Origin: Chrysochromulina tobinii
Lineage: Eukaryota; Haptophyta; Prymnesiales; Chrysochromulinaceae
Reading direction: 5' to 3'
DNA: 64,000 bases
NCBI GenBank assembly: GCA_001275005.1
Contig: JWZX01003352.1
Coordinates: 1 to 64,000 of the forward strand
The number at the start of each line of letters is the position of its first letter. Within the stretch, counting starts at the first letter, position 1. The position numbers and the translations under genes were made by a program. Below the pieces are notes generated by a model, which searched no databases, was not told where the DNA came from, and was given only the letters and a program-made list of their open reading frames with translations. Positions 39,008-53,963 of this stretch are shown here, piece after piece.

Positions 39008-39780
39008 TTAAAGCCCGTGCTTCGCTCGCTCCTTCTCCACGTTGACGCCGAGCGTATCGAGCAGTCGGAGCGCGGCCGATGGATCGGAACACTGGAGACA
39101 CTTGCCAATCAGCTTCGCCTTCTCCGTCTGCACTTCCTGGCCCAGACCCACCAGGAGCAGGTTGACGTCGGGCCAGATGTGACGTGGCATCCAGCCCTCG
39201 ATGACCTTGCGCGTCTTCTCGGGCGTCTTGCTGCCCTGCGCGCCCGCCCAGCCGAGCTGGTTGCAGATGCGATGCACGTGCGTGTCCACCGAGATCCCCA
39301 CAGTCTCGTCAAAGGCGACCCTCATTAGGATGATTGCCATTTTAGGGCCAACGCCTGGGAGATCGAGCAGCGCGTCCATCGTGCGCGGTACCTCGCCCTC
39401 GTGCCGCTCGAGCAGCAGGCGCGTCGTCTCCTTGATGAAGCGCACCTTGTTGTTGTGGAAGCCGACCTGACGAATGTACTCGTGCAGCGTGTCATCCGTC
39501 ATCGCGCTAACTGACGTTACCGTTAAGCCTCCAGGCTGGTGCGCTCGCAGCTTCTTCATCGTGGCCATATTGATCGTGTCCTTGGTCTGGCTCGAGAGCA
39601 TCAGCGAGATGAGCGCCTGGTACGCGCGCTCGCTCGCGCTCACATCTCCGATCGCCGAGATCGCCTCGGTCCCCATCGAGTCGACCACCGCCGTGCGGTC
39701 GGCACGCAGCTCAACGATCAGGTCCCACGTGGACTGCCAGCCGGGCGGAGGAGCGATCGCGGCGGCGCTCGACTTGGAGG

Positions 39781-39821
<41 letters not shown>

Positions 39822-40105
39822 GCCGGCTCGGACGAGACCTCGCCGGCCGCCTTGCGGCTGCGCTTCTTTGGCTGCGGCTCGGTAGATTCTGCATCCGCCT
39901 CGGCAAGTTTGGTGGCTTTCGGTGGGCGGCCGCGCTTCTTCGGCTGCGCTTTGGGCGGGTCTGCCTCCGCCTTGGGCGAGCCTGCCTCCGCCTCGACCGA
40001 TTCGAGCCGCGCGACCACTGTCGAAAACTTGAGGGGTCGCCCTCTCCTACGCTCACCATCGCCTGTCATGCACATGGCCGCACTACCAATACGCGTGCGC
40101 ACCAT
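39008..40105 (-). CDS. Endonuclease III homologue (NTH1) lacking the full Fe-S motif
   Basis: This is a 365-residue bifunctional DNA glycosylase/AP lyase of base excision repair. I chose ATG 40105; the frame is open further upstream but without conservation. Residues 1-125 are a basic disordered tail with AT-hook-like KKRGRPPK and a poly-Ser run encoded by a TGC-repeat (plus strand 39786-39820). The HhH motif is LPGVGPKMAIIL, with the catalytic Lys in place, followed by the catalytic Asp in SVDTHVHRICNQLGW. The C-terminus, where NTH proteins carry four Cys ligands (CX6CX2CX5C), has only KCLQC in GQEVQTEKAKLIGKCLQCSD. The 4Fe-4S cluster is therefore probably lost. Confidence 0.85.
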
Positions 40106-40390
40106 CAGAGCTGCGGAGCGCGCTGGATGCAGGTGAGGGAGCGCACAGCAACGCGCTGCCACGGAGGCGAGCGCTGCGCAGAGGGCCCTGATGGTCGCCA
40201 ACAGCGTCGAGGAAGTGACGTTTCGTTTGCGGAAAGTTCCGGCCCCCGGTGTGTTTTGAACGGGGACGTTTACCGAGTAGCCTTTTGCCCCCTCACGGTG
40301 CTCGAGTGCTCCAAGTGGGGTAATGATTGAATTCGCAATTATTTTTGTCACGTTCGTGACACGATTTTTTCTGCCTCGAACATAGTCGCG

Positions 40391-43300
40391 ATGAATCCAG
40401 TCGCGGAGGCGGCTGGTCAGCTGCTTCACAACAGAGGTGGATCGATGCTGTTGTCTCAATTCATCGCGGATCTGTACGAAAAGATTCCTATAGCCGCGAA
40501 GGAGCAGATCGCCGCAGCCGGTGGGCCAAAGAAGTGGGCCAACACGTCAGGCTTCACAATTACTTATGGGCCCAAGCCAGGTATGGAGACCATCGCGAAA
40601 GCGGGGCATTCGACAGCACCGCCGCATCGCTGTAAGCGTGGAGTCGCGTCCTCGTCATGCTCCAGCGCAGCGCTCGCGGCTGCACCCAGGACCAGCAAGG
40701 CACCTACTGCTGCGGCTGGCAAAGCACCTGCCATGACTGATATGATCGACCCAGGGCGAGGTGCTCGGCCGGGCTTCTTCGATGCATGGCAGGTCTGCGA
40801 GTACTGCCGGAGCAAGGCGGTTGGCCGAACCGACACAGACGGCGTCTTCTACTGCAACAGCTGTTGGAAGAGCTGGAAGGATGTGGACGTCGAGCTGACT
40901 CTGACGGCCTCCGGCGGGGGCTCTGTTGGGCTGGTTCCTCCGGTCGCCGGCAGCGCGGTCGTCACTGCCACCGTGCCAACGGGGCCCATCAAGTCGTCCA
41001 GCTTGCAGCGCTCTCAGTCGTTCAACAGGAAAGAGAAGAAAGACGCCAAGACGCTGGAGGCAGCACCGCCTGCAAGTCGAGTCAACGAGCGTCCGCGCGA
41101 TCTAGAGCTTCGGCTCTCGCTCGACCGCCAAGCATCGCCTGCGGAGAAGGCGCGATACGCGAATCTAAACCCTGGTGGCGTGTTTGCATGCTTCAAGGAG
41201 ACCTTCGAGCTAGGTCCCAAACACTTCGGCACCATCACCTTTCACGCGGGCAACTTCAGTGTACCCCTGCGCTTGATCGACGACGCCGCAGAAAGGGCGA
41301 TCAAAGAGCTGACAGTGAGGCCGCGATGGCGGGTCAAGGGCACTGCGCTCTTCGTTCGCCAAGGGAGTGACAAGCAGGCGGCATCGCCTCGTGAACAGCA
41401 CACCATGCCGTCGCATGGCAGCGCCCGCCCGCCCGCCGCGGTTATCTCGGAAGACATTGCCAAGTTTTGGGCCCGACTGAAGACCGCGCTCGAAGGTGGC
41501 ATGAAGGTCGACGCGCTCAAGCTACACGAACCGCACAGCCGGCAGCTGTGGCTCGCATGCTGGAAGGCAGCGGCGGCTGGAGTGTCCGGAAGCGGCCACG
41601 ACGTGCTGCTCAAGGTGCTGCTCAAGGCAGCGGCCACGTCAAATCTAGCGCCGCCGCCGCTCGTGCGAGGCTGCGTCTTGATCCCTCAGCCCATGGGCCC
41701 ACACCTTTCCGCTGCGTAGTCATTCAGAGGGTGCCGGATCGAATCGCGCCCACGCAGGATGTTATGCAAGTACTCGGCCACTATGTCAACTTCGTCAAGA
41801 GCTCCGCGCGGAGCCACGAAGACGCTCTCGCAGCACTTGAGCTCGTGGCAGATGTCGTGTCCAGCCGCGTTATTGGGCGTGAGTCAACAGTTGACAGTCA
41901 CGAGGCCGTGATCGAGCAGCTCTCGAGCCTCACTGACGCGTTCATGAAGTTGGCTGGCGATGCACAGAACCGTTCTAACGCTCTGCGCGTAATGATGCGA
42001 GCCAACGCGGCTTCCTCGCGTTTCCTCGCATCGATCGACGCGTGCGAGGAGGCGGCGAAGCGTTTGGCCATTGACGGGCCCACTCGCTGTGTCGAGAGCG
42101 AAGATGGCCTGCACCAACCGTGGATGGGATGGGCTACTGAGCCGACCATCGGCTGGCTGATGGGAACAGACTGGCTTCACCCACCCGGGCTCTCCTCAGT
42201 CTATTCGGACCCTACAGCGTACTGCAAAGCCCTGCAGCAGCTGACCACTATGCTCACATTTTACTGGGGCGCGGGCGCAATTGCGCCGAGGTGCCGCCAT
42301 CAGCAGGTCGGTGGGGGCGATGCCAAGTGCTGTAATGAGCCACTGCTTCACCTCGCGAGAGGGCACGCGGAATGCACCGCGCGCCTTCCAAACGGTTCTC
42401 CCTGCCGCAGTCCGGCAATGTTCACCTGCCCGCGCGGAAATCACGCAGATCGTGTCTGCGCGCCATGCCTGAAGCGCTCACAGCTCGCTCTCATGGGCAG
42501 CCCAGGAGCGAAGTCATTCCCTTCCACCGACATCTATGACGCTGTCATCCAAGGAGAGCTTGTCCGGCGTGAGGGTCATGTGTACGTACTCTCGGAGCTA
42601 CGCTCACGCCGACCGCCTCGGGACGAACCGAACTGGCGAACAACCTATCGCCTCGCTTGCCCTGCTCTCGTCGCCATCTGCCGCCTGACAATATCCGGCG
42701 AGGCTTTGCTGCCCTCGACTCGCATGTTTTGGGCTGAAGTTGTAAACTTGGTGAGCGGGCCGGGCGCAGACGAGGCGCAAGCTCGAAAGTCTGGGCGTAT
42801 GGCCGTCAGGCTACTCGGCCGCTCCGACATCAGCGTGCTACCAAGGGCAGCAGATCTCAACGTCGGCACGCGCGTTTGTGTCATCGACCTTCGGGTCTTC
42901 GCGCCGGAGGTGGTGCCGGTCCTAGCGACGTTCGCTGACCCGCAACTGCCCGAGCAGTTCGGCCGCATGAGCTTTGTGCAGCGCCTCATCGGCCAGGGTG
43001 ATCCGCCGCAGCCCATGCTCATCGGGGACGCGACCTGTATACCAGAACGCATTGCCAACGCGATCAATAGGACAGAGATTCAGCTCGTGCAGCGCCTACC
43101 TGGCGAGGCTCGCGCTCGCATCATCGATCAGATCAGCTTGCTGGCCGCAAAAGCCACGCTGTACGGTACGCAGCTCGACGCCTTCTGCAATGCGCTTCAG
43201 TACTCGGTGCATTGCACGCAGGGGCCTCCAGGCACGGGCAAGAGTTACACAGGCGTGCAGCTCATCGCGGCACTAAACATCATGCGGCAAGCGCTCATAG

Positions 43301-46300
43301 CGCACGGCCAACCCGTTGGCCCGATCATTGTGCTGGCATACAAGAACCACGCACTCGATGAAATCCTTCTCGATGTCAAAAGTCACTCTGCGCTCAACTG
43401 CAACTTGCCCGGTAGTCTGATCCGCTGTGGCAAGTCGGAAGATGAGCGGCTTTGGAAGCACGCTGAGCACTTTTCTGCCGAGGAAAAAACTTGGGAGCAC
43501 GCGTTGACGGAGCGCCTGAACAGCCTCCGACAGATGCGAAACTTTGGTCGAGATCTTCAAGACTTGAGCTCGCATCTGATGGTGAATGTGCCCGCCCTCC
43601 AACACGGCAGCGTCGAGGCGAGGAGCCAGCTGCTAGTCTGGCGCCCAAGCAAGGTGAGTATCGTCGAGACGGCAGTGGGAGCACTGTGCATGAGCATTGA
43701 AGTCATGAGCGCAGTGCTTGAGGCGCGAGAGGATCACGATGCAAGCACTGAAGCGTCAGGAACACAGGGCGAGTCTTGGCCCGACAGCAAGACCGCATAC
43801 CGCTTACTGGAATCCGCATGCAAGGCGTCGACCTCTCAGACAATCAACCGCATACCAGTGCGGAAGCTGTTGGCGTGCATGGAAAGACTCAGGGCAGAAG
43901 CCGAGCACTGGATCCTTCCAGGCGAAATGTCTACAGCGTCGCTTCTCCAGGCTTGGCTCAGCGGCCTGGACCCTCCGCCACGATGTATTGCGATCGAGAG
44001 CTCTGAAACTCCGATGATGACGAATGTGCGGTGCTTCGGGATCGCATGCAAGCCAGGTGGCTTCTGCTTTGATCTTCATGCGTGCAGGTCAAGAGGTTGC
44101 GACGCGCAGCGCACTACCGAGCCCTCGCGAGGGCTTGTGCCCTTCTGTGAGAAGCACCGTTGCCAAGCCACAGACAACTGCCCCAAAGAACAGCTCAGCT
44201 CTGCGCTTTTCTGCGAGATTCACAGCTGCAGAGCTTGTGTGCATTTCCACAAGGAAAACGGCCAACCAATTTTGATGGCCGACCCTCACGCATGTGTCGC
44301 GCACCGTTGCAATGTTCAGGGCTGCATCAAGCTTCAGCATGGCCCAAACTGCCGGTACTGCAACGATCACGTGTGCGACGCTTGCCTTCGAAGCCACAGC
44401 ACGAGCGTCATGCCTAGAGTTCCGGGATCTAAGTTTTGCTCGCAGCATCAGTGTACAGCGCAGGGCTGCACGAACCTTCGAATCCAAAACACGAGCGCAC
44501 TTCAGACACTATGCGACGCCCACGCGTGCGTCGTCTGCACTGGCATCCGCAAGCCGCTCGACCCGCAGATGCCACGGGCGCGCTTGTGCTTTGAGCATCG
44601 CTGCCAGTATGTACACGCATTCATCGGTGATGAATCTTCCAGCAACCTGCCCTGTGCTCAGCAGCGGTGCGGTGGCTCTTTCTTCTGCGCGGATCACTCG
44701 TGTAAGATCTGCTTGCAGCTGCCCTCCGTAGTAGATGTGGGTGCAGCATTCGAACCGCCACCGCGCAACGTCTGTGTGAAGCATCGCCTGTGCAGTTTTC
44801 AATATAGCAGCGGAGCGCGCTGCGTGGACATCGCTGATGGCGAACACTACTGCAAGCTGCATGAGCTCGAGCTCTCGAAGCGCACCTGCAATTCGGTGGC
44901 CACCGACAGCCCTGCTTTTGAGCAGATCTGTCACGGCACGACCAAAAAGAATAAACCGTGCAGAACAAGGGGTAAGGCGCCGATAGGTAAGGCGTTTTAT
45001 TGCGCTGCGCACGCCGACCAGGCCCCTGAGTCGGAGTCCGAAGAGGAGAGCGAGCAGGACACAGAGTCCGAGGAGGAGAAGGAGGAGGCTCCTCAGACGG
45101 GCCACAGCGTTGAGCCGACTGGTTGGATGAAGAGCTTCTTTAGCCTCGGCGTATCCAGGCAGGAGGAACTCGACCTGGCTCTCGCCCTCTCTGCGTCTCT
45201 CACCAACAGCCATCCAATCTTGGCGCCACTTGAGCTGATGCCGCCGCTGCGGACCCCGCCACCAGAGCCAGACCCACCAGAGCTGCCGGTCAAGGACGAT
45301 CCTACGCAGCCGAGCTCATCCACCTCGCGCGTGCCGTCAGGTCTTTCCGTCGAAGCTTCGGAGGCGCCTTCTACCTCTGGCATTCTTGTAGCAGACCAAG
45401 ATCCCTTTGAAGCAACCTTGGAGGCTCATGACACTGATTTCAATCGAAGCACATATCTCGATCCGGATGAGCTCGATCTTGACGATTACGAGAGCTCCGC
45501 CTCGAACGAGGAGCAACAACGGCTACGAGAGGTACTCGGGGAGTGCGATGTGATCTCTGAAGCAGGCTCAGATGGAGCAGGCAGCTTCTCTTCCGTAAAT
45601 GTTCTCGAACCGGACTTGGACTTAAAGGGGACTGTGGAAGGGCAGCTGCTCGAAGAGCTTGCCAGTGCCGTTCTCGAGTGGTCGTGGAAGATGGCGGTCG
45701 ACCATCGGTGGCTAGCAGCATCGAGATTCGTTCAGAAGATGAGCGACATCGTCAACGTTCTGCGAGGTACGCTTGCCATCCGCTCACACTTCGTGCACAT
45801 GTTGAAGCGCTCACCTCCAGCTGCATGGTGTGTCTCTGTGTGGCAGATCAAGCAGAGCCTCTCCTCGATGAAGCGAGGCAGGGACGCGCTGAGGCGTCCG
45901 CCCAGACGTTCAAGAACGCCCAGATCATTGGTTCAACTGTCGTAGGAGCGGCGCGACGGCTCAGTGCACTGCGTGCCGCCGAGCCCTTTGCTGTAATAGT
46001 TGAGGAGGCGTGCGAGGTGATGGAGCCGACACTCATGTCGGTGCTCTCGGTGCCGTCGCTGCAGAAGCTCGAGCAGGTGGGTGACCACCGCCAGTTGCCC
46101 GCTTTCATTCAACAGTGCTGGTTCAACCTCGAGATGACCATGCCGGCGCTCAAGGTGTCGCTTTTTGAACGGCTCGTTACGGGCGGGCAGACATCTCGCG
46201 AGCGCCACGGCCATCGTGACGAAAGGGCGCGCTCCGTCGCGTCATTCGATGTGCTCGAGGAGCAGTGGCGCATGCGTCCCGCCATCTCCGACCTCACACG

Positions 46301-49300
46301 GGGTCATTATGCAGATTTGGTCTTGATCAAGGATCATGCGCGCACGGTCTCCCAGCGCATTGGCGACCGCGTCGTGGTGGCGACTTCGAGCGAGTCCCTG
46401 GAGCGAGATACATGGCACACTCGAGGTCGGCTTGTGCCCGGTATTGTGCCGCAGGTCTACTTCTGGGACCTACCAAACAATGCGGTTGGCAGGCCTGTGG
46501 CCGGCCTCTCCGCATGCAATTACGTCGAGGCAAATGCCATTGCTTCAGCCGTCAAGTACCTGGTCACCCTATGTGGCGTGCCGCCGTCGACCATCTCGAT
46601 CATCACACCGTACAAGGGGCAGCGGACGGCTATCATGAAGGCGCTTCAATCGAACGGAGCCCTTCCCAAGCCGACCTACCACGGCAAGGGCGGCAAGGGC
46701 GGCAAGGGCGGCAAGGGAGGCCGAAGCGGTGGCCGCGGCACCGGCGGCCGGGGAGGCGGCATTGATACGGACGAACAGATCACCGTGTCGACTGTGGATC
46801 GGTACCAGGGTGACGAGAACGACATTGTCTTCCTGTCGCTCGTGCGCACAACGCCCGGCAACCGTTTCGTCGGTCTCGTGAACCGCTTTATCGTCGCCAC
46901 GTCACGCGCGCGTATTGCCTTCTTTATCTTCGGCTCGACCGCAGCAGTTGAGAAGAGCAAGGAGAAGGGCGGTCGCGGGCTAGAGCACTGGTGTGGGATG
47001 CTGGATGGCCTGCGCGAGGGCAACGAGGATCTCGCTCAGGCATGCGAGCCGTGTGAGACCAGCCGCGGCGTGGGTAGCGCCTTCCCCATCTGCTGTCCGC
47101 GTCATCCGCAGACGCGCCGGGATATCACTTGTGTGTGCAGCGAGGCAAAGTGTCTGTTGGTGCACTTCCCAGGCCGTCACGTGCAGAATGACGGACCGCG
47201 GCGCGCTGAGGAAGACGAGTCGTTCTGCATGCTGCACTGTGAGCACAAGCTCGAGTGGTGCGGTCATCAGTGCGGCCTCCCTTGTCACTCTCCTATTCGT
47301 GCGAAGCACTCATCAGCAAGCAACTGCGTCCACGCGGTCAAAAGCCCGTGCGAGCTGCACGCCAACGTACAGCTGCGATGCGGCAAGCTCTACGACAGCG
47401 CTCGCGTGATTTACGGTCCGATCCCGATGAGCTTTCAAGAGGTACTTCAACCAACGAGATTCCGCTGCGAAGTTCAGGTGGAGCATCGACGTGCCGAGTG
47501 CTCTCATAGCATTCAGATGAACTGCTGGGAGCGACAGCGAGTGCTCGCAGGTACCGTTACGCTACCACCCTGCGAGGTTAAAGTCGCCGACTGGCATCAC
47601 CCGGCGTGCAACCATGTCACGAAGCAGCCCTCGTGCAGCGATCGACGCCGCTGGGAAGCCGAGCCGCCTGACTGTCAGCAGCTGACGACACTTACAAAGC
47701 CGTGCGGGTGCACTGCCAAGCTCAAGTGCTTTGAGCGTGGGCGCGAGGGGGCGACGAGGTGTGTTGAAGCTGTCACCATGTGTCGCCCAAGATGCTCCCA
47801 TCAGCTGTCGCTGCGATGCTTCGAGCGGAAGGCTTTTGGCGAGCTTTGGGAGAATGAGGACGCGGAGAGTGTGACGTGTGCGGAGGCCAAAGGCGAACCG
47901 GCGGTTGTGGTGCGCTTCGACCAGTTGTATGGCCGCTCGGAAGCGCAGCTCGCTAGACTCATTCCGAATGCGATGACACATGTGTCCGAGTGCAAAGTAC
48001 TCGTGACATACGTAATGCCATGTGGCCACCGTATTCCCAACGTGCCTTGTGCTACCGCGTTCCGCTGGGCCGACAAGTCGGACCCAGAGCAGCCACCGTG
48101 CTGCAACGAAATCGTGCGGTTCACGAGCCCCATCTGCGGCCACGAAGTCAAGGCGCCGTGCTGGGTCCAGGCTGACCAATCATGGAAAGACTTTCTAATC
48201 CACACCGGCGAGACCGACAGCTCTGGTGTGCGTATGCTGCCTGAGGGCTTTCTGCAAGAGCTCGATAGAAGGATCTCACGTGGTTCTCTCCCGCCGGCGA
48301 TCTTGAAGATCGCACGTGGCTGGTGCGAAAAGTACGTCACGGTGCGCCGCCATTGCACGCACGAGTCGCAGGTGCAGTGTAGCAGAGTCCTCTCGGTAGA
48401 TCGTCTGCCCAAGTGCACGGCGATGGTTCCACGACGTCTGGACGCTTGCGGCCACAATGTATCTGTCGAATGCCACCGCTCAAGTGACGAGCTGCCCGAG
48501 TGCCAGATGGTGGATAATACGCCTTTCTGGTTCGCGTGCAACAGGCACAGCACAACTCCCGGCAGCTGCTTCAAGCTGCGCCGAATAAAGCTCGAGGCAC
48601 CACTGTGTAACTCGGATGTACGATGCGCCCGGTATCGCTGCGGGCATAGCGCGATGCTCCCGTGCAAGCTCGAGGCGGGGGCAGTCGCAGCGCAGCCGGG
48701 CAAGCGCCTTGAGGAGGGCGCGAAAGTGCTGGCGGGCGTGCAGTAGTGCCCGGTTCCAGAGGGTGTGCCAGCGTGCGACGCGCTCGTTACTTTCTGTACC
48801 GAATGCGGCCATGAGAAGGACGTGCCGTGTAGCCTCGCGTTTCGATGGGCCGCCGCTCCTGAAGAGGTACCGCCGTGCGATTCGCTTGTCGAAACGTGCA
48901 GCCCTCTCTGCGGCCACTCCCTCAGTATGAGGTGCCATGACGCAAAAACGATGCCGGATCTTGCGCAAGCGCTCTGGGCTGCGGAGGCGAAGCCGTGGGG
49001 GCAGCAGCCGAAACAGTTCCTGAGGTTCGATGCCGATGATGCGTCAACCGAGACTATTGTCATCGATGAGGACACGCCACAGCCCACCGGACTCGACTCG
49101 CTCACTCCAAGGCAGCGCGGGCTGCTCCTGTGCAACAGTACCATCGCCATCAGCCGTCCGTGCGGGCACCAGCAGCAGGTACCGTGCATGGAGGCGCTCA
49201 AGAGGCTAACCACGGGCCAGTGCGAACACTTAGTGAGTGTTGCTTGCGAAGACTGCGGAACAGAATCACTCGAACCATGCCACAGAGCTATTGCAATTGA

Positions 49301-51602
49301 GTTGGGCACCGTCCAGCACATATGTCAACAGCTGATCACGAAGGTCTGCATGACTTGCTTCATCAACGAGCAGTCCGTTTCTTGCTCTGTGCGCCATACG
49401 AGCTGCGCACGCGAGGTGACGGCGCAGCTCGGTTGCGGTCATTCCATCAGCTGGCGCTGCGGCGAAGATGCCGATCCTCGCATCGATAACAGCCAGGCCT
49501 GCTCAGAATGCACGCTCTCACGGTGGATGCTCGAGGACAAGAGCCCGCATCTGACTGTCAGTCTTGACCAGCTGCGCGGTTTTGCCATGTCTGCTCTGCA
49601 CCCGCACCCCACTGTGGAACATAAACCGCTCGAACCATCTTTCAAGCCGCTTCTGAATTGGCACGAGGGCATGAGACGCGCGCAGCGCAAGATCGTGAGC
49701 ACATATGTTGACTTGATTCGGGCCAGCATCGAGAATGGTGAGATGTGGGACAGCGATCGAGCAGAGCCACCAGACCTCTCGGATCTTAAGAGCTACCAAC
49801 CAGTTTTCTGTCGCTTAAGGGCAGATCGAAAGGATGATGAACAGATTTTGTGTTTCTTTCAGCAGCAAGACACGCGATATGGCACGGGAGTTCAGATCTT
49901 GCCTCTGACAACTGACAATATGAAGGCGTACACCGCCGAGGAGGACCTCTCGCTTCGAATTTGTGTTGGTGTCGCGTTTGGATTCTCACCTCTCGTTGGC
50001 ACAGCGCCATTCAAGCAGGCACTAGCACCAGGTTCAAAATCCAAGGTCAAAAAGGGTGCTGCAAACGATAATCTAGTGAAGGCAAACAGACACGCGTTCA
50101 ATGCTCAGCAGCGCGGTTATGATTACGTCATCCCGTCTTCTGGTGACCAGAAAATGGACTCCTCGCGCATCTACTGGCTACCAGGCTCGGTGATTCCGCT
50201 CTCAATTGTGACGATCAGGATTCACCGCTCGTGTGCATCTTGCAAGAAGAGCAACTTTATCAGCACAGACGGCGCTCCTGGCATCGACACTGATGAGATG
50301 CTTTGTGATTTCTTGTGTCATAGCTGCCGACGTGACTGCTTCGTGTGCGTTAGGAGCTTCGCCGCAGCCGCGGGCCTTGAGTGTCGTGACAAGCACTTTG
50401 TTTGCCGTGCCTGCCTGCAGCGCCACTGCGCGCAACTGTGCTCACAGCCAGATCACTTCGCAGCGCATGCCGGTATCACCTGCCCTTTCACCACATGTGG
50501 CGAGTCGTTTGCGGAGAGCGTCCTCGCGAAATGCGTCGCACAGGCTACGATGGATGAGGTACTTAAGGCAAAGCAAGCAGGGCTTGAGCGGCAGTTCGAG
50601 GCGGTTACAAAGGCGCAGGAAGAACTGTATCGAGATCAGCTGCATCAGGCAGAGCGTCAGAAGGCCGAGGCGGAGAGAGCAGGGGCCAAGGCCACAAAGG
50701 AGCGTGATGAGCTTCGCATCGCCCGCGCCATGCCAGACTACTGGGAGAAGCGAATTGCGACCAGTTCGCTGGATGGCCTCGCCGCGATTGCCCTCGACCG
50801 CACTGGCCGCGACCGTAGCACTTGGGCCGCACTCGAGCGGCTGCTGCAGACCGACCCAGTGAAGCTGAAACAGAGCGGTGCCGATCGACGGGCCCCCGTC
50901 ACGCACGACCGGCTGGAGCTCGCGTGCGCGTGGCGCCTCGAGAACCCGTCGCTGTGGGAAAAGTATATGAGCGGCGTGCAGGGTGTGATGAACGACATGA
51001 AGCGCATCCGGCAGGGGCGAGTGGCATCCGCGGGCGGCGCGCCGCCCCTTACATGCCGCGTAGCGGACGCCTTACCCGGCGACCTGCGCGTGGACGTCAA
51101 TGAGGCCTTCCTGATGCACGGCACGAACGCCGGCGTGCTCATCAATATCCTCTCCACGGGCATGAACGAGCGCTTCGCCGGCACGGCCGCCGGAGCTGCA
51201 TACGGCGAGGGCTCCTACCTGGCCGAGGACGCGGGCAAGAATGACCAGTACACCAAGGTGGATCAGCAGTACGATGGGAGCTCGGAGCTGCACAAGCGGC
51301 TGTACGCGCATGGCGCGCGCCACCCGGGCATGGTCTTCTACATCCTCGTGTGCCGCGTGGCGCTCGGTCATCAAGTGCGCACGCAGGAGCATGGGCCGTT
51401 AGCAACGAGTTCCGATACGGGTCGACGCGTGTTCCCCATCTCGTTCCGCGAGCTCGATACGGTGGCCGGCGTCTCTCCACCCGTGCATCACCACTCGCTG
51501 CTTGCCGACGTCATCGGCATTGGCAGGCGCTACCGCGAGTACATCGTCTTCCACTCTGAGTACATCTACCCCGAGTACCTGCTGGCCTACCAGCGGTACT
51601 AG
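40391..51602 (+). CDS. Giant ZNFX1-type helicase / NFX1 zinc finger / RING-like / PARP fusion
   Basis: Inferred exons: 40391-41662, 41728-45766, 45847-51602, about 3,690 codons. Domains by residue: a possible LOTUS-like winged helix (1-75, weak); a CxxC...CxxC zinc site (about 135-160, CEYCRSKAVG...CNSC); helical region; SF1 helicase motif I GPPGTGKSY (about 922); a Cys/His array (about 1200-1500); a UIM-like EELDLALALSASL (about 1568); helicase motif II VIVEEACEV (about 1820), QVGDHRQLPAF, EEQWRMRPAI, a KGG/RGG run, TVDRYQGDENDIV and NRFIVATSRAR; NFX1-type fingers (about 2190-2980); RING-like CFVCVRSF...CRACLQRHC (about 3230-3335); coiled coil; PARP domain (about 3510 to end) with HGTNAG, GSYLAED and SEYIYPEYL, so the H-Y-E triad is present. 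ZNFX1 relatives are RNA helicases of silencing and antiviral sensing. An in-frame TAG lies at 48744; a 78-base intron 48684-48761 would remove it. Confidence 0.75.
41663..41727 (+). other. Giant gene intron 1 (inferred)
   Basis: 65 bases, GTGCGAG to ATTCAG, phase 0 on both sides. The upstream frame would otherwise stop at 41719. No direct repeat is visible at its borders, unlike the ABCF3 and ClpB introns. Confidence 0.6.
45767..45846 (+). other. Giant gene intron 2 (inferred)
   Basis: 80 bases, GTACGC to TGGCAG, phase 1. It joins IVNVLR to DQAEPLLDEARQGRAEA, leading into helicase motif II. The frame change between 45678 and 45945 requires it. Confidence 0.7.
48684..48761 (+). other. Possible short intron hiding an in-frame TAG
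   Basis: The frame is open from 45678 to 51602 except for TAG at 48744-48746. A phase-0 intron from GTCGCA (48684) to CCAGAG (48761), 78 bases, would remove it. That size fits the gene's other introns (65 and 80). The donor is weak; a GC donor at 48675 is a second option. Otherwise the TAG is a real stop, a read-through codon or an error. Confidence 0.35.
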
Positions 51603-51684
51603 TGCAACCTTGGGCCGATGGCATGAGTGTGGCGAGTGAGTGTGGGCGCGCTAGAGTGACTGTGCAGTGTCTGGAACGCTGATC

Positions 51685-51894
51685 ATGACCGCGCGGCGGT
51701 ATGAGGTATGTGAAGACGATGAAGTTCGACAGTTCTTCTCCCGCGCGGCGCGCCAGGGCCACAACTTAATGTTATTCCATCGCTCCGCTGAAGCTCGTCA
51801 CGGCGTCCGTCTAAAGTTGTTCAACATGCAAGCGGCCGCTGAAGCCGTGAAGCGATTCAAAGCCCAAAGCGGCCGCCTCCTTTCATTGGTTTGA
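51685..51894 (+). CDS. Doubtful small ORF downstream of the giant gene
   Basis: This is a 69-residue frame from an ATG with protein-like composition (RRYEVCEDDEVRQFFSRAA). It could be a micro-protein or simply 3' UTR of the giant gene. No family is recognised. Confidence 0.2.
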   Translation: MTARRYEVCEDDEVRQFFSRAARQGHNLMLFHRSAEARHGVRLKLFNMQAAAEAVKRFKAQSGRLLSLV

Positions 51895-52478: not shown

Positions 52479-53834
52479 TCAATCCTCATCCTCCTCATCC
52501 TCCTCGCCGTCATCGGACGCGATCGCGAGGTTCGCGTAATTGCCCGCCGGGTAGATGACCTTGGCGACCACCTCCCACTCTATTCGGAAGACTGCCCAGA
52601 CGTGGCGGCGAAGGATCTCGATGACCTCAAAGAAGAGCATGCCGAGCCCGCGCCCGGGCACCCCGCCAAAGACAGAGAGCGCCCACGCGAAGCGCAACAC
52701 CAGGTCGAAGACGCATAGGAGGATGTAGACGCTCTTGGAGCGTGTCACGAGAAGCGGCTCGCGCATGGCGCACACAGCGGCCGGCCCACCGCAGTACGCG
52801 GACCCGGTCTCATCGGGGTACCGGCCGCCGAGGTTGGCGCGCCGGAAGAGCCCCCAGTCCATGTGAACGTCCCAGATCAAGCAATACGTCGACTGCACGA
52901 CCGCACAGAGGATGAAGAGCTGCTCGTGGAATGCGGACGGCTCATGCTTCTTGAGGTAGCCCGCGTAGACGAGCGGGAAGGCGGTCGAGTACTTGAGGGC
53001 GTTCCACAGGTTCTTGACCTCGCGCGTCTCCGAGTACACCCGGAGGCATTGCATCAGGCGCCACCAAAAAGGAAGAGCCAGGAAGATTCCGTTCACGGGC
53101 GAGTCGGCGCACGACTTGTACGACTGGTGCCAGAGCGTCGTGGTGCGCGCATAGTTGCCCTCGCCGTCCGCATCGCCCAGAAAGATGCCCGAGGAGATGC
53201 ACATGGTGATCTGCAGGTCAGACATCGCCTTGGCCAGCGACGTCAGGTAGTCCGCAACGATCACGTGCCAGAAGGTCACGGGCGCAAACGGCGCGATCAA
53301 GGACTCGAAGAGAGTGCGAAGCAGCGAGAGGCGCGAGTCGCCATAGAAGAGGTTGCACGGGAGCGCGCCGATCAGGAAGAAGGCGACATTCAGCGCGCAG
53401 TTGGACACCAGCCATGGCCTCCATGTGACGCCCGGCGTCTCGGAGGCCCAAAAGTGTAGCAGATGGGCAGCAAGCAAGAGGCACAGCAGCTGCAGGGCCG
53501 CGTGGTAAGTGGCCCCGGGCATCTGCACCGGACCACCGAGGACATGGTCAACCTCCAGTCGCGCAGCCTGGCACACGCTGATCACCCAGCCCCAGCCGCC
53601 CACCACGAGCACGATGAGCAGCGGCGGCCGCACGGTGGCATTCTTCCAAAAGAGCTTAGAGAGCACGGTGTACAGGCTTGGCGTGTGGATCTCGTCGTGC
53701 AAATTGACAACTAGAAGCGCTAACATTAGCGTCACGAGAAGGATCGCGGTCACTGTGGCGGTGGGGCTCATCGTGATCAAATTTCCTAAATTGGCTTCTT
53801 GCCTCCAGGGAGAGAGGACAGGAGGTGCAGTCAT
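52479..53834 (-). CDS. EXS-domain membrane protein (ERD1/SYG1/XPR1 type)
   Basis: This is a 451-residue multi-span protein from ATG 53834. The EXS domain covers most of the chain: FWHVIVADYLTSLAKAMSDL, a central PFWWRLMQCLRVYSETREVK, then NALKYSTAFPLV and WDVHMDWGLFRR, and near the end LFFEVIEILRRHVWAVFRIE. These are family signatures of SYG1/XPR1 phosphate exporters and yeast ERD1. No SPX domain precedes it, so it resembles ERD1 or short EXS proteins of the Golgi, linked to phosphate recycling and glycosyltransferase retention. The tail is strongly acidic (SDDGEEDEEDED). It diverges from the decarboxylase gene with only 129 bases between starts. Confidence 0.85.
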   Translation of the reverse strand: MTAPPVLSPWRQEANLGNLITMSPTATVTAILLVTLMLALLVVNLHDEIHTPSLYTVLSKLFWKNATVRPPLLIVLVVGGWGWVISVCQAARLEVDHVLGGPVQMPGATYHAALQLLCLLLAAHLLHFWASETPGVTWRPWLVSNCALNVAFFLIGALPCNLFYGDSRLSLLRTLFESLIAPFAPVTFWHVIVADYLTSLAKAMSDLQITMCISSGIFLGDADGEGNYARTTTLWHQSYKSCADSPVNGIFLALPFWWRLMQCLRVYSETREVKNLWNALKYSTAFPLVYAGYLKKHEPSAFHEQLFILCAVVQSTYCLIWDVHMDWGLFRRANLGGRYPDETGSAYCGGPAAVCAMREPLLVTRSKSVYILLCVFDLVLRFAWALSVFGGVPGRGLGMLFFEVIEILRRHVWAVFRIEWEVVAKVIYPAGNYANLAIASDDGEEDEEDED

Positions 53835-53963
53835 GTTTGTCGGGTGTGACTATGGAAGTTCGAACAGACCAGTCTTGGAGATTTCCGTGCAAAACGCCGT
53901 TGCGGCGGCGATCAAGGAGGAACGTGGTCACGGCAATTTCATCACCACACAAAATCCAACTTC

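What the first reader, a model, noticed from the sequence alone, without database searches (positions are those of the whole stretch)
40391..51602. One-chain fusion of ZNFX1-type RNA helicase, NFX1 zinc fingers, RING-like module and active-site-complete PARP
The sequence shows SF1 helicase motifs (GPPGTGKSY, VEEACEV, QVGDHRQLP, QWRMRP, VDRYQGDEND, VATSRAR), long NFX1-like Cys/His fingers, then a PARP domain with His, Tyr and Glu in the right places (HGTNAG, GSYLAED, SEYIYPEYL). Known families: ZNFX1 helicases work in RNA silencing and antiviral sensing, and PARPs with zinc fingers respond to RNA or stress. Joining them in one polypeptide of about 3,660-3,690 residues suggests an RNA-triggered ADP-ribosylation device. 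I am not aware of this exact architecture being described, but cannot search.
Basis: partly seen in the sequence, partly recalled or inferred. Interest (0 to 1): 0.92.

Follow-up and report, generated by a model that had tools for sequence, protein, structure and literature searches.

The report
RNA helicase with swapped enzyme tail
In a microscopic alga, a giant RNA helicase gene whose relatives end in a ubiquitin-attaching module ends instead in an ADP-ribose-attaching module copied recently from another gene family, which suggests that such cells exchange the enzyme tails of large proteins, although one stop codon leaves open whether this copy is made as a single chain.

Summary
The domains are real: SF1 helicase, long Cys/His finger arrays, one RING, and a PARP with an intact H-Y-E triad, at 40391-51602. 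But the gene is not a ZNFX1. Its helicase belongs to a giant protist family (about 2,050-3,580 aa) most of whose members end in an RBR-type ubiquitin-ligase module (RING1, coil, Rcat). The window keeps RING1, then at about 50658 switches to a ~1-kb segment 86.5-88.6% identical in DNA to PARP-tail genes of the same genome (two are kinase-PARP), copied past the stop. The Rcat is gone. Best reading: a helicase-E3 whose ubiquitin-transfer half was recently replaced by an ADP-ribosyltransferase.

One chain is unproven: an in-frame TAG (48744-48746) interrupts the fingers where 19 of 20 aligned relatives share an amino acid. RING1 to PARP is one open frame; helicase to PARP depends on that TAG. Organism: very likely the haptophyte Chrysochromulina tobinii.

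The parts
40391..51602 (+). whole gene: ATG 40391 to TAG 51602; preferred exons 40391-41662, 41758-45766, 45847-51602 (3,679 codons counting the in-frame TAG and the final stop)
   Evidence: frames, splice scan, alignment with P0184-P0186, translation
41663..41757 (+). intron 1, 95 nt, GTGCGA...CCCACGCAG
   Evidence: listed; preferred over the 65-nt form because one search shows a 10-residue excess against relatives with the latter; not shown by cDNA
45767..45846 (+). intron 2, 80 nt, GTACGC...TGTGGCAG
   Evidence: gap-free match to relatives across the junction
48744..48746 (+). in-frame TAG inside the finger array, at a position where 19 of 20 aligned relatives have the same amino acid; alternatively removed by a 60-nt GC-AG intron 48700-48759
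40928..41035 (+). N-terminal motif GLVPPVAGSAVVTATVP...RSQSF shared with two other places of the genome (C870, C1718)
43168..43836 (+). helicase RecA1, first part (motif I GPPGTGKS at 43222)
   Evidence: AAA_11; coordinate
44032..44793 (+). Cys/His repeat array inserted between helicase motifs Ia and II
   Evidence: sequence; region aligned in relatives; coordinates
45166..45201 (+). possible ubiquitin-interacting motif (ELDLALALSASL); recognised by eye from a recalled consensus only
   Evidence: sequence; no family hit
45846..46940 (+). helicase RecA1 end and RecA2 (motifs II VEEACEV 45999, III 46080, V 46794, VI 46893)
   Evidence: AAA_11 and AAA_12
47000..50300 (+). long Cys/His finger array (limits by eye), colinear with relatives
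50325..50549 (+). RING1 of an RBR-type module, all eight zinc-ligand positions of the relatives kept
   Evidence: alignment to P0184 tail, family columns; family RING1 matches RBR E3s
50658..51703 (+). segment shared with PARP-tail genes at C132, C333, C440 (86.5-88.6% DNA identity): coil, PARP and 3' flank; the 5' edge is the fusion junction
50661..51599 (+). PARP tail, 313 aa; H 51117, Y 51216, catalytic E 51537

Best explanation
The gene is a member of a giant protist helicase/finger family most of whose members end in an RBR-type ubiquitin-ligase module (RING1, coil, Rcat), and its Rcat half has been replaced by a PARP tail copied from a PARP-tail gene of the same genome (kinase-PARP at C333 and C440). 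Shown: the two sources, the junction within about a dozen residues, no detectable Rcat in the window, intact PARP triad and helicase motifs. Inferred: the helicase and fingers bind an RNA or RNP, ATP-dependent rearrangement exposes or activates the tail, and the tail ADP-ribosylates bound or nearby targets where relatives would ubiquitylate them. The kept RING1 may still recruit E2~ubiquitin. That helicase and PARP are made as one chain requires the in-frame TAG to be bypassed (readthrough, splicing) or to be an assembly error.
Against: The in-frame TAG at 48744-48746 may end the helicase chain; P0121 begins just downstream of it, as expected if the TAG is real. No transcript, activity or RNA-binding data. 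Only one genome carries this exact junction in the searches made, so it could be a young and transient fusion. The tails of the relatives lack the His that follows the aligned Cys in parkin, so their E3 activity is itself only predicted. Six of 52 relatives show no Rcat pattern. The genome has 16 matches to the RBR tail at E up to 1, of which only C1471 and the window were looked at.
Confidence: 0.62

Rival explanations
1. Split gene: the TAG is real and the locus makes two proteins, a helicase-finger protein ending at 48746 and a separate finger-RING1-PARP protein starting at an ATG such as 48927 or 48951.
For: TAG in frame; predicted protein P0121, 884 aa, starts at the residue coded at 48951; each half is openly coding.
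Against: In each of the 20 relatives aligned (of 52) the finger array runs through this point in one predicted protein.
Confidence: 0.22
2. An ordinary member of the widespread ZNFX1-PARP family that inherited its PARP.
For: 75 of 120 listed homologs of the C870 gene carry helicase and PARP; the best solved-structure hit of the helicase is ZNFX1 9q9z (1.3e-14).
Against: Helicase and PARP each fall in a different, fully supported clade from that family; the PARP is 86.5-88.6% identical in DNA to PARP-tail genes; no ZNFX1-domain hit.
Confidence: 0.03
3. A decaying or chimeric gene without function: a recent 3'-end replacement and a premature stop mark a pseudogene on its way out.
For: TAG in a conserved segment; the final TAG is also earlier than the stop of the donor-type genes, whose last residues remain downstream of it.
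Against: Otherwise open frames with all catalytic motifs; tail dN/dS below 0.5 against C132, C333 and C440, although this partly reflects those genes.
Confidence: 0.1
4. Assembly artefact at the RING-PARP junction.
For: Many similar PARP tails in the genome could mislead an assembler.
Against: P0121 from another contig carries the same junction.
Confidence: 0.03

Closest known systems
P0184-P0235, giant protist helicase family (PF13086, PF13087, mostly PF26600 and PF26601; named members in red algae, Dinobryon, Cymbomonas, Chromera, Ectocarpus)
   Same: helicase core, inserted Cys/His array, finger array, RING1; about 2,800 residues align in the same order with P0184
   Different: 46 of 52 show an Rcat-like tail; the window has a PARP instead
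ZNFX1 (human 1,918 aa; SF1 helicase, NFX1 fingers, RZ finger; PMC11959080, passages seen)
   Same: SF1 helicase core followed by Cys/His fingers
   Different: other helicase clade, no ZNFX1 domain or RZ finger detected, PARP present
ZNFX1-PARP proteins (C870 of the same genome, Limulus P0024, Dendronephthya P0060, Sycon P0073, Rhodomonas P0007, Prymnesium P0074)
   Same: one-chain helicase, fingers, PARP
   Different: different helicase clade and different PARP clade; often two PARPs
kinase-PARP genes (C333, C440 of the same genome; P0122-P0135)
   Same: the coil-PARP tail; PARP part 78-91% identical to P0122-P0135
   Different: a kinase instead of a helicase in front
RBR E3 ligases (parkin, RNF216; plant 'Plant I/Helicase' subfamily, PMC2904391, start of abstract in a search listing)
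   Same: RING1 and, in the window's relatives, an Rcat-like tail; a helicase-named RBR subfamily is known in plants
   Different: the window lacks Rcat; that the plant helicase is of another superfamily is recalled, not tested
PARP9/DTX3L (PMC11251020, PMC11251048; search listing only)
   Same: couples ADP-ribosylation with a ubiquitin ligase
   Different: two proteins in a complex; functional analogy only

Membership tests
PARP (H-Y-E type) | PARP catalytic fold | tested here: met
PARP (H-Y-E type) | H-Y-E triad | tested here: met
   H153, Y186, E293 of the tail invariant in 34 aligned rows
PARP (H-Y-E type) | ADP-ribosyltransferase activity | not testable with these tools
   needs purified protein
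ZNFX1 | SF1 helicase core of the ZNFX1 clade | tested here: not met
   falls in the other 100/100 clade
ZNFX1 | ZNFX1 domain (PF25396) | tested here: not met
   no hit up to E 0.1 in four frames scanned apart; the same library gives a weak hit for C870
ZNFX1 | NFX1-type fingers by profile | tested here: inconclusive
   no hit, but named NFX1-type proteins list none either
ZNFX1 | RZ finger | tested here: not met
   the one RZ match in the genome is on C1322
Giant RBR-ended protist helicase family (P0184-P0235) | same-order homology over helicase, fingers, RING1 | tested here: met
Giant RBR-ended protist helicase family (P0184-P0235) | Rcat-like tail | tested here: not met
   46 of 52 relatives have it, the window does not
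RBR E3 ligase | RING1 and catalytic Rcat | tested here: not met
   RING1 present, Rcat not found
ZNFX1-PARP family | helicase and PARP both of that lineage | tested here: not met

The most novel reading that the evidence does not exclude
Haptophytes exchange writer tails (RBR-type E3 or PARP) between sensor bodies (helicase, kinase) as a plug-in system: helicase-RBR in relatives, helicase-PARP in the window, kinase-PARP (C333, C440) and kinase-RBR (C1471) in the same genome. The window protein is an RNA-sensing E3 converted to an ADP-ribosyltransferase, and its kept RING1 may bring E2~ubiquitin to the PARP, so that it modifies ubiquitin or ubiquitin-loaded targets in one chain.
Probability: 0.3. 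Interest if true: 0.85.

Novelty: new variant of a known kind. Interest (0 to 1): 0.6.

Why it matters
Helicases that sense RNA carry different protein-modifying tails: RZ-finger or RBR-type ubiquitin modules in some, PARPs in others. In the 240 rows listed by two searches (a few proteins are in both lists, and both lists are capped), 77 carry helicase and PARP, 23 carry an RZ finger, and no row carries both. Here one lineage can be watched changing from ubiquitin to ADP-ribose at a mapped DNA junction. If the chain is made, it is a natural experiment on whether the sensor decides when and where, and the tail only decides which mark. It also points to a widespread ZNFX1-PARP family that I did not find described in the rows listed by my literature searches.

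Tried and rejected
Rejected as preferred account of the TAG: the 60-nt GC-AG intron at 48700-48759. I first used it (model of 3,668 aa) because it restores a finger spacing; alignment with relatives showed that it would delete sequence they code for. It remains possible. Also replaced: a 65-nt first intron (41663-41727) by a 95-nt one. Residue numbers quoted for the window protein come from the 3,668-aa model.

Rejected: TAG reassignment. The listed matches across the genome show no in-frame TAG; three show TGA. A stop survey of PARP tails resolved 8 of 22 loci, all TGA, the other 14 being missed by the pattern used, so it tells little.

Full report
What was checked. The window is contig C2193 of a 53-Mb eukaryotic genome. 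It is very likely Chrysochromulina tobinii: a found protein of that name (P0154) lies on a contig of 18,245 bases, the length of C1462 here, which carries a 58% match; the published assembly has 59 Mb in 3,472 contigs and 63.4% GC (PMC4580454, passages), against 2,253 contigs held here.

Gene structure. Frames on the + strand cover 40331-41719, 41395-45945, 45561-48746 and 48747-51602. Pfam finds AAA_11, AAA_12 and PARP. Two short GT-AG introns join the first three frames. The third and fourth frames are the same frame, parted only by TAG 48744-48746. I first removed this TAG with a 60-nt GC-AG intron, which gave a 3,668-aa model. Alignment with 20 relatives (chosen of 52) then showed that the surrounding sequence is coding in them, and that 19 of the 20 have the same amino acid at the TAG (P0203 does not align there). 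The TAG is therefore unexplained: real stop, readthrough, intron or error. P0121 has 771 residues identical to the window, then a few changes, and starts at the residue coded at 48951, which fits a TAG that is also present in that other assembly.

The helicase is not ZNFX1. The window helicase is best matched by P0184-P0235, proteins of 2,049-3,583 aa from protists and algae, up to 57% identical over the searched region. In a tree of 43 rows chosen of 239 the two helicase clades are separated at 100/100, and the window sits with P0184-P0186 at 99/96. Of 135 hits, 120 were listed; two of these carry a PARP: P0202, in which the PARP (25.3 bits, just under the Pfam cut-off) lies after the helicase core and the Rcat pattern is kept, and P0272, a ZNFX1-clade protein. 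The genome search found no second copy of the window helicase.

The tail of the relatives. They end in RING1, a coil and a Cys pattern typical of RBR Rcat. By strict pattern 27 of 52, by loose pattern 46 of 52 have it; the six without are P0189, P0207, P0211, P0213, P0226 and P0228, of which P0207 shows a variant and P0211, P0213 and P0228 show no such region in their last 150 residues. A 12-row profile finds parkin RING1 and RING2 (3.8e-7). The predicted P0184 tail (pLDDT 85, pTM 0.50) matches RBR ligases, RING1 well and the second half weakly. IBR_2 is a Pfam hit below its cut-off (20.8 against 27 bits). That these tails are active ligases is inferred.

The junction. Protein homology to P0184 ends in the coil after RING1. 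Of 8 loci compared, DNA identity with PARP-tail genes begins at 50658-50661 in four: C132 86.6%, C333 88.6%, C440 86.5%, and C1284 78.7% (in two pieces); in C1951 (86.5%), C830 and C1462 it begins at 50721-50727, and C2049 matches weakly. In C132, C333 and C440 it ends at 51632-51703. C333 and C440 are kinase-PARP genes by Pfam; C132 was not scanned. The last residues of the donor-type genes remain downstream of the window's earlier stop. tblastn of ten relatives' last 180 residues against the whole window gives, below E 0.05, only a match to the RING1 region. dN/dS of the tail is 0.27-0.47 against C132, C333 and C440, with dS 0.15-0.28. The swap is thus young.

The PARP. H, Y and E are invariant in 34 aligned rows. 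The model (pLDDT 88) matches tankyrase and PARP15. Its tree clade (100/100, 21 of 66 rows) is apart from the PARPs of the ZNFX1-PARP family. Of 63 homologs of the last 412 residues, 25 carry PARP and a kinase domain, and 2 (P0174, P0178) carry a helicase, which falls in the ZNFX1 clade.

Convergence. In the same genome, C870 codes a ZNFX1-type helicase, fingers and two PARPs, with helicase motifs V-VI, fingers and both PARPs in one 745-aa open frame (fingers by eye). Of 120 listed homologs 75 carry helicase and PARP. I infer that helicase and PARP joined at least three times: ZNFX1-PARP, the window, and P0202, whose PARP groups with second PARPs of ZNFX1-PARP. P0174 and P0178 pair a ZNFX1-clade helicase with a window-type PARP. 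The helicase tree needs at least five changes of the PARP label, gains and losses not told apart.

Tail exchange. C1471 of the same genome is a kinase followed by RING1 and Rcat (Pfam kinase 2.6e-31; 44% to the P0184 tail; sequence). With kinase-PARP (C333, C440) and the window this gives three of the four combinations of body and tail in one genome and the fourth in relatives. The proteins of C440 and C1471 show no similarity to each other, so the kinases differ. Of the 16 matches to the RBR tail in the genome only C1471 and the window were examined.

How it most likely works. By analogy with ZNFX1, reported to bind dsRNA (PMC11959080, passages), the helicase and fingers would bind RNA. The tail would add ADP-ribose where relatives would add ubiquitin. 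Shown: parts, sources, junction, intact catalytic residues. Inferred: RNA as trigger, targets, coupling to RING1, and that one chain is made.

Noticed in passing
L050 (C870:1-10000): Two tandem ZNFX1-PARP-type genes; the first is cut by the contig end (fingers then PARPs), the second has a CCCH finger (Pfam) and a possible UIM near its N-terminus (by eye).
   Followed up: partly
window 40928-41035; C870 2989-3120; C1718 25254-25400: A motif of about 35 residues (GLVPPVA.SAVVTATVP.GP..SS.L.RSQSF) is shared by three places of the genome; two code helicase-PARP genes, and C1718 has helicase matches about 2 kb downstream.
   Followed up: partly
genome contigs C1676, C1369, C2247: Helicase or Rcat-like matches with 1 to 4 in-frame TGA codons; possibly contaminant contigs with another code, or pseudogenes.
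   Followed up: no
genome G000: 58 matches (not genes) to the PARP family, 57 of them marked over the cut-off.
   Followed up: partly
P0202 residues about 2076-2235: A helicase of the window's family with a PARP after the helicase core while the Rcat pattern is kept: it looks like an independent fusion.
   Followed up: partly
window 39008-40546 (-) and 52479-53849 (-): Neighbouring frames that look like an endonuclease III-type DNA glycosylase and an EXS-type membrane protein; identified by eye only, no search made.
   Followed up: no
window 40391-40570: The N-terminus resembles a small winged-helix (LOTUS-like) domain by eye; no family hit.
   Followed up: no
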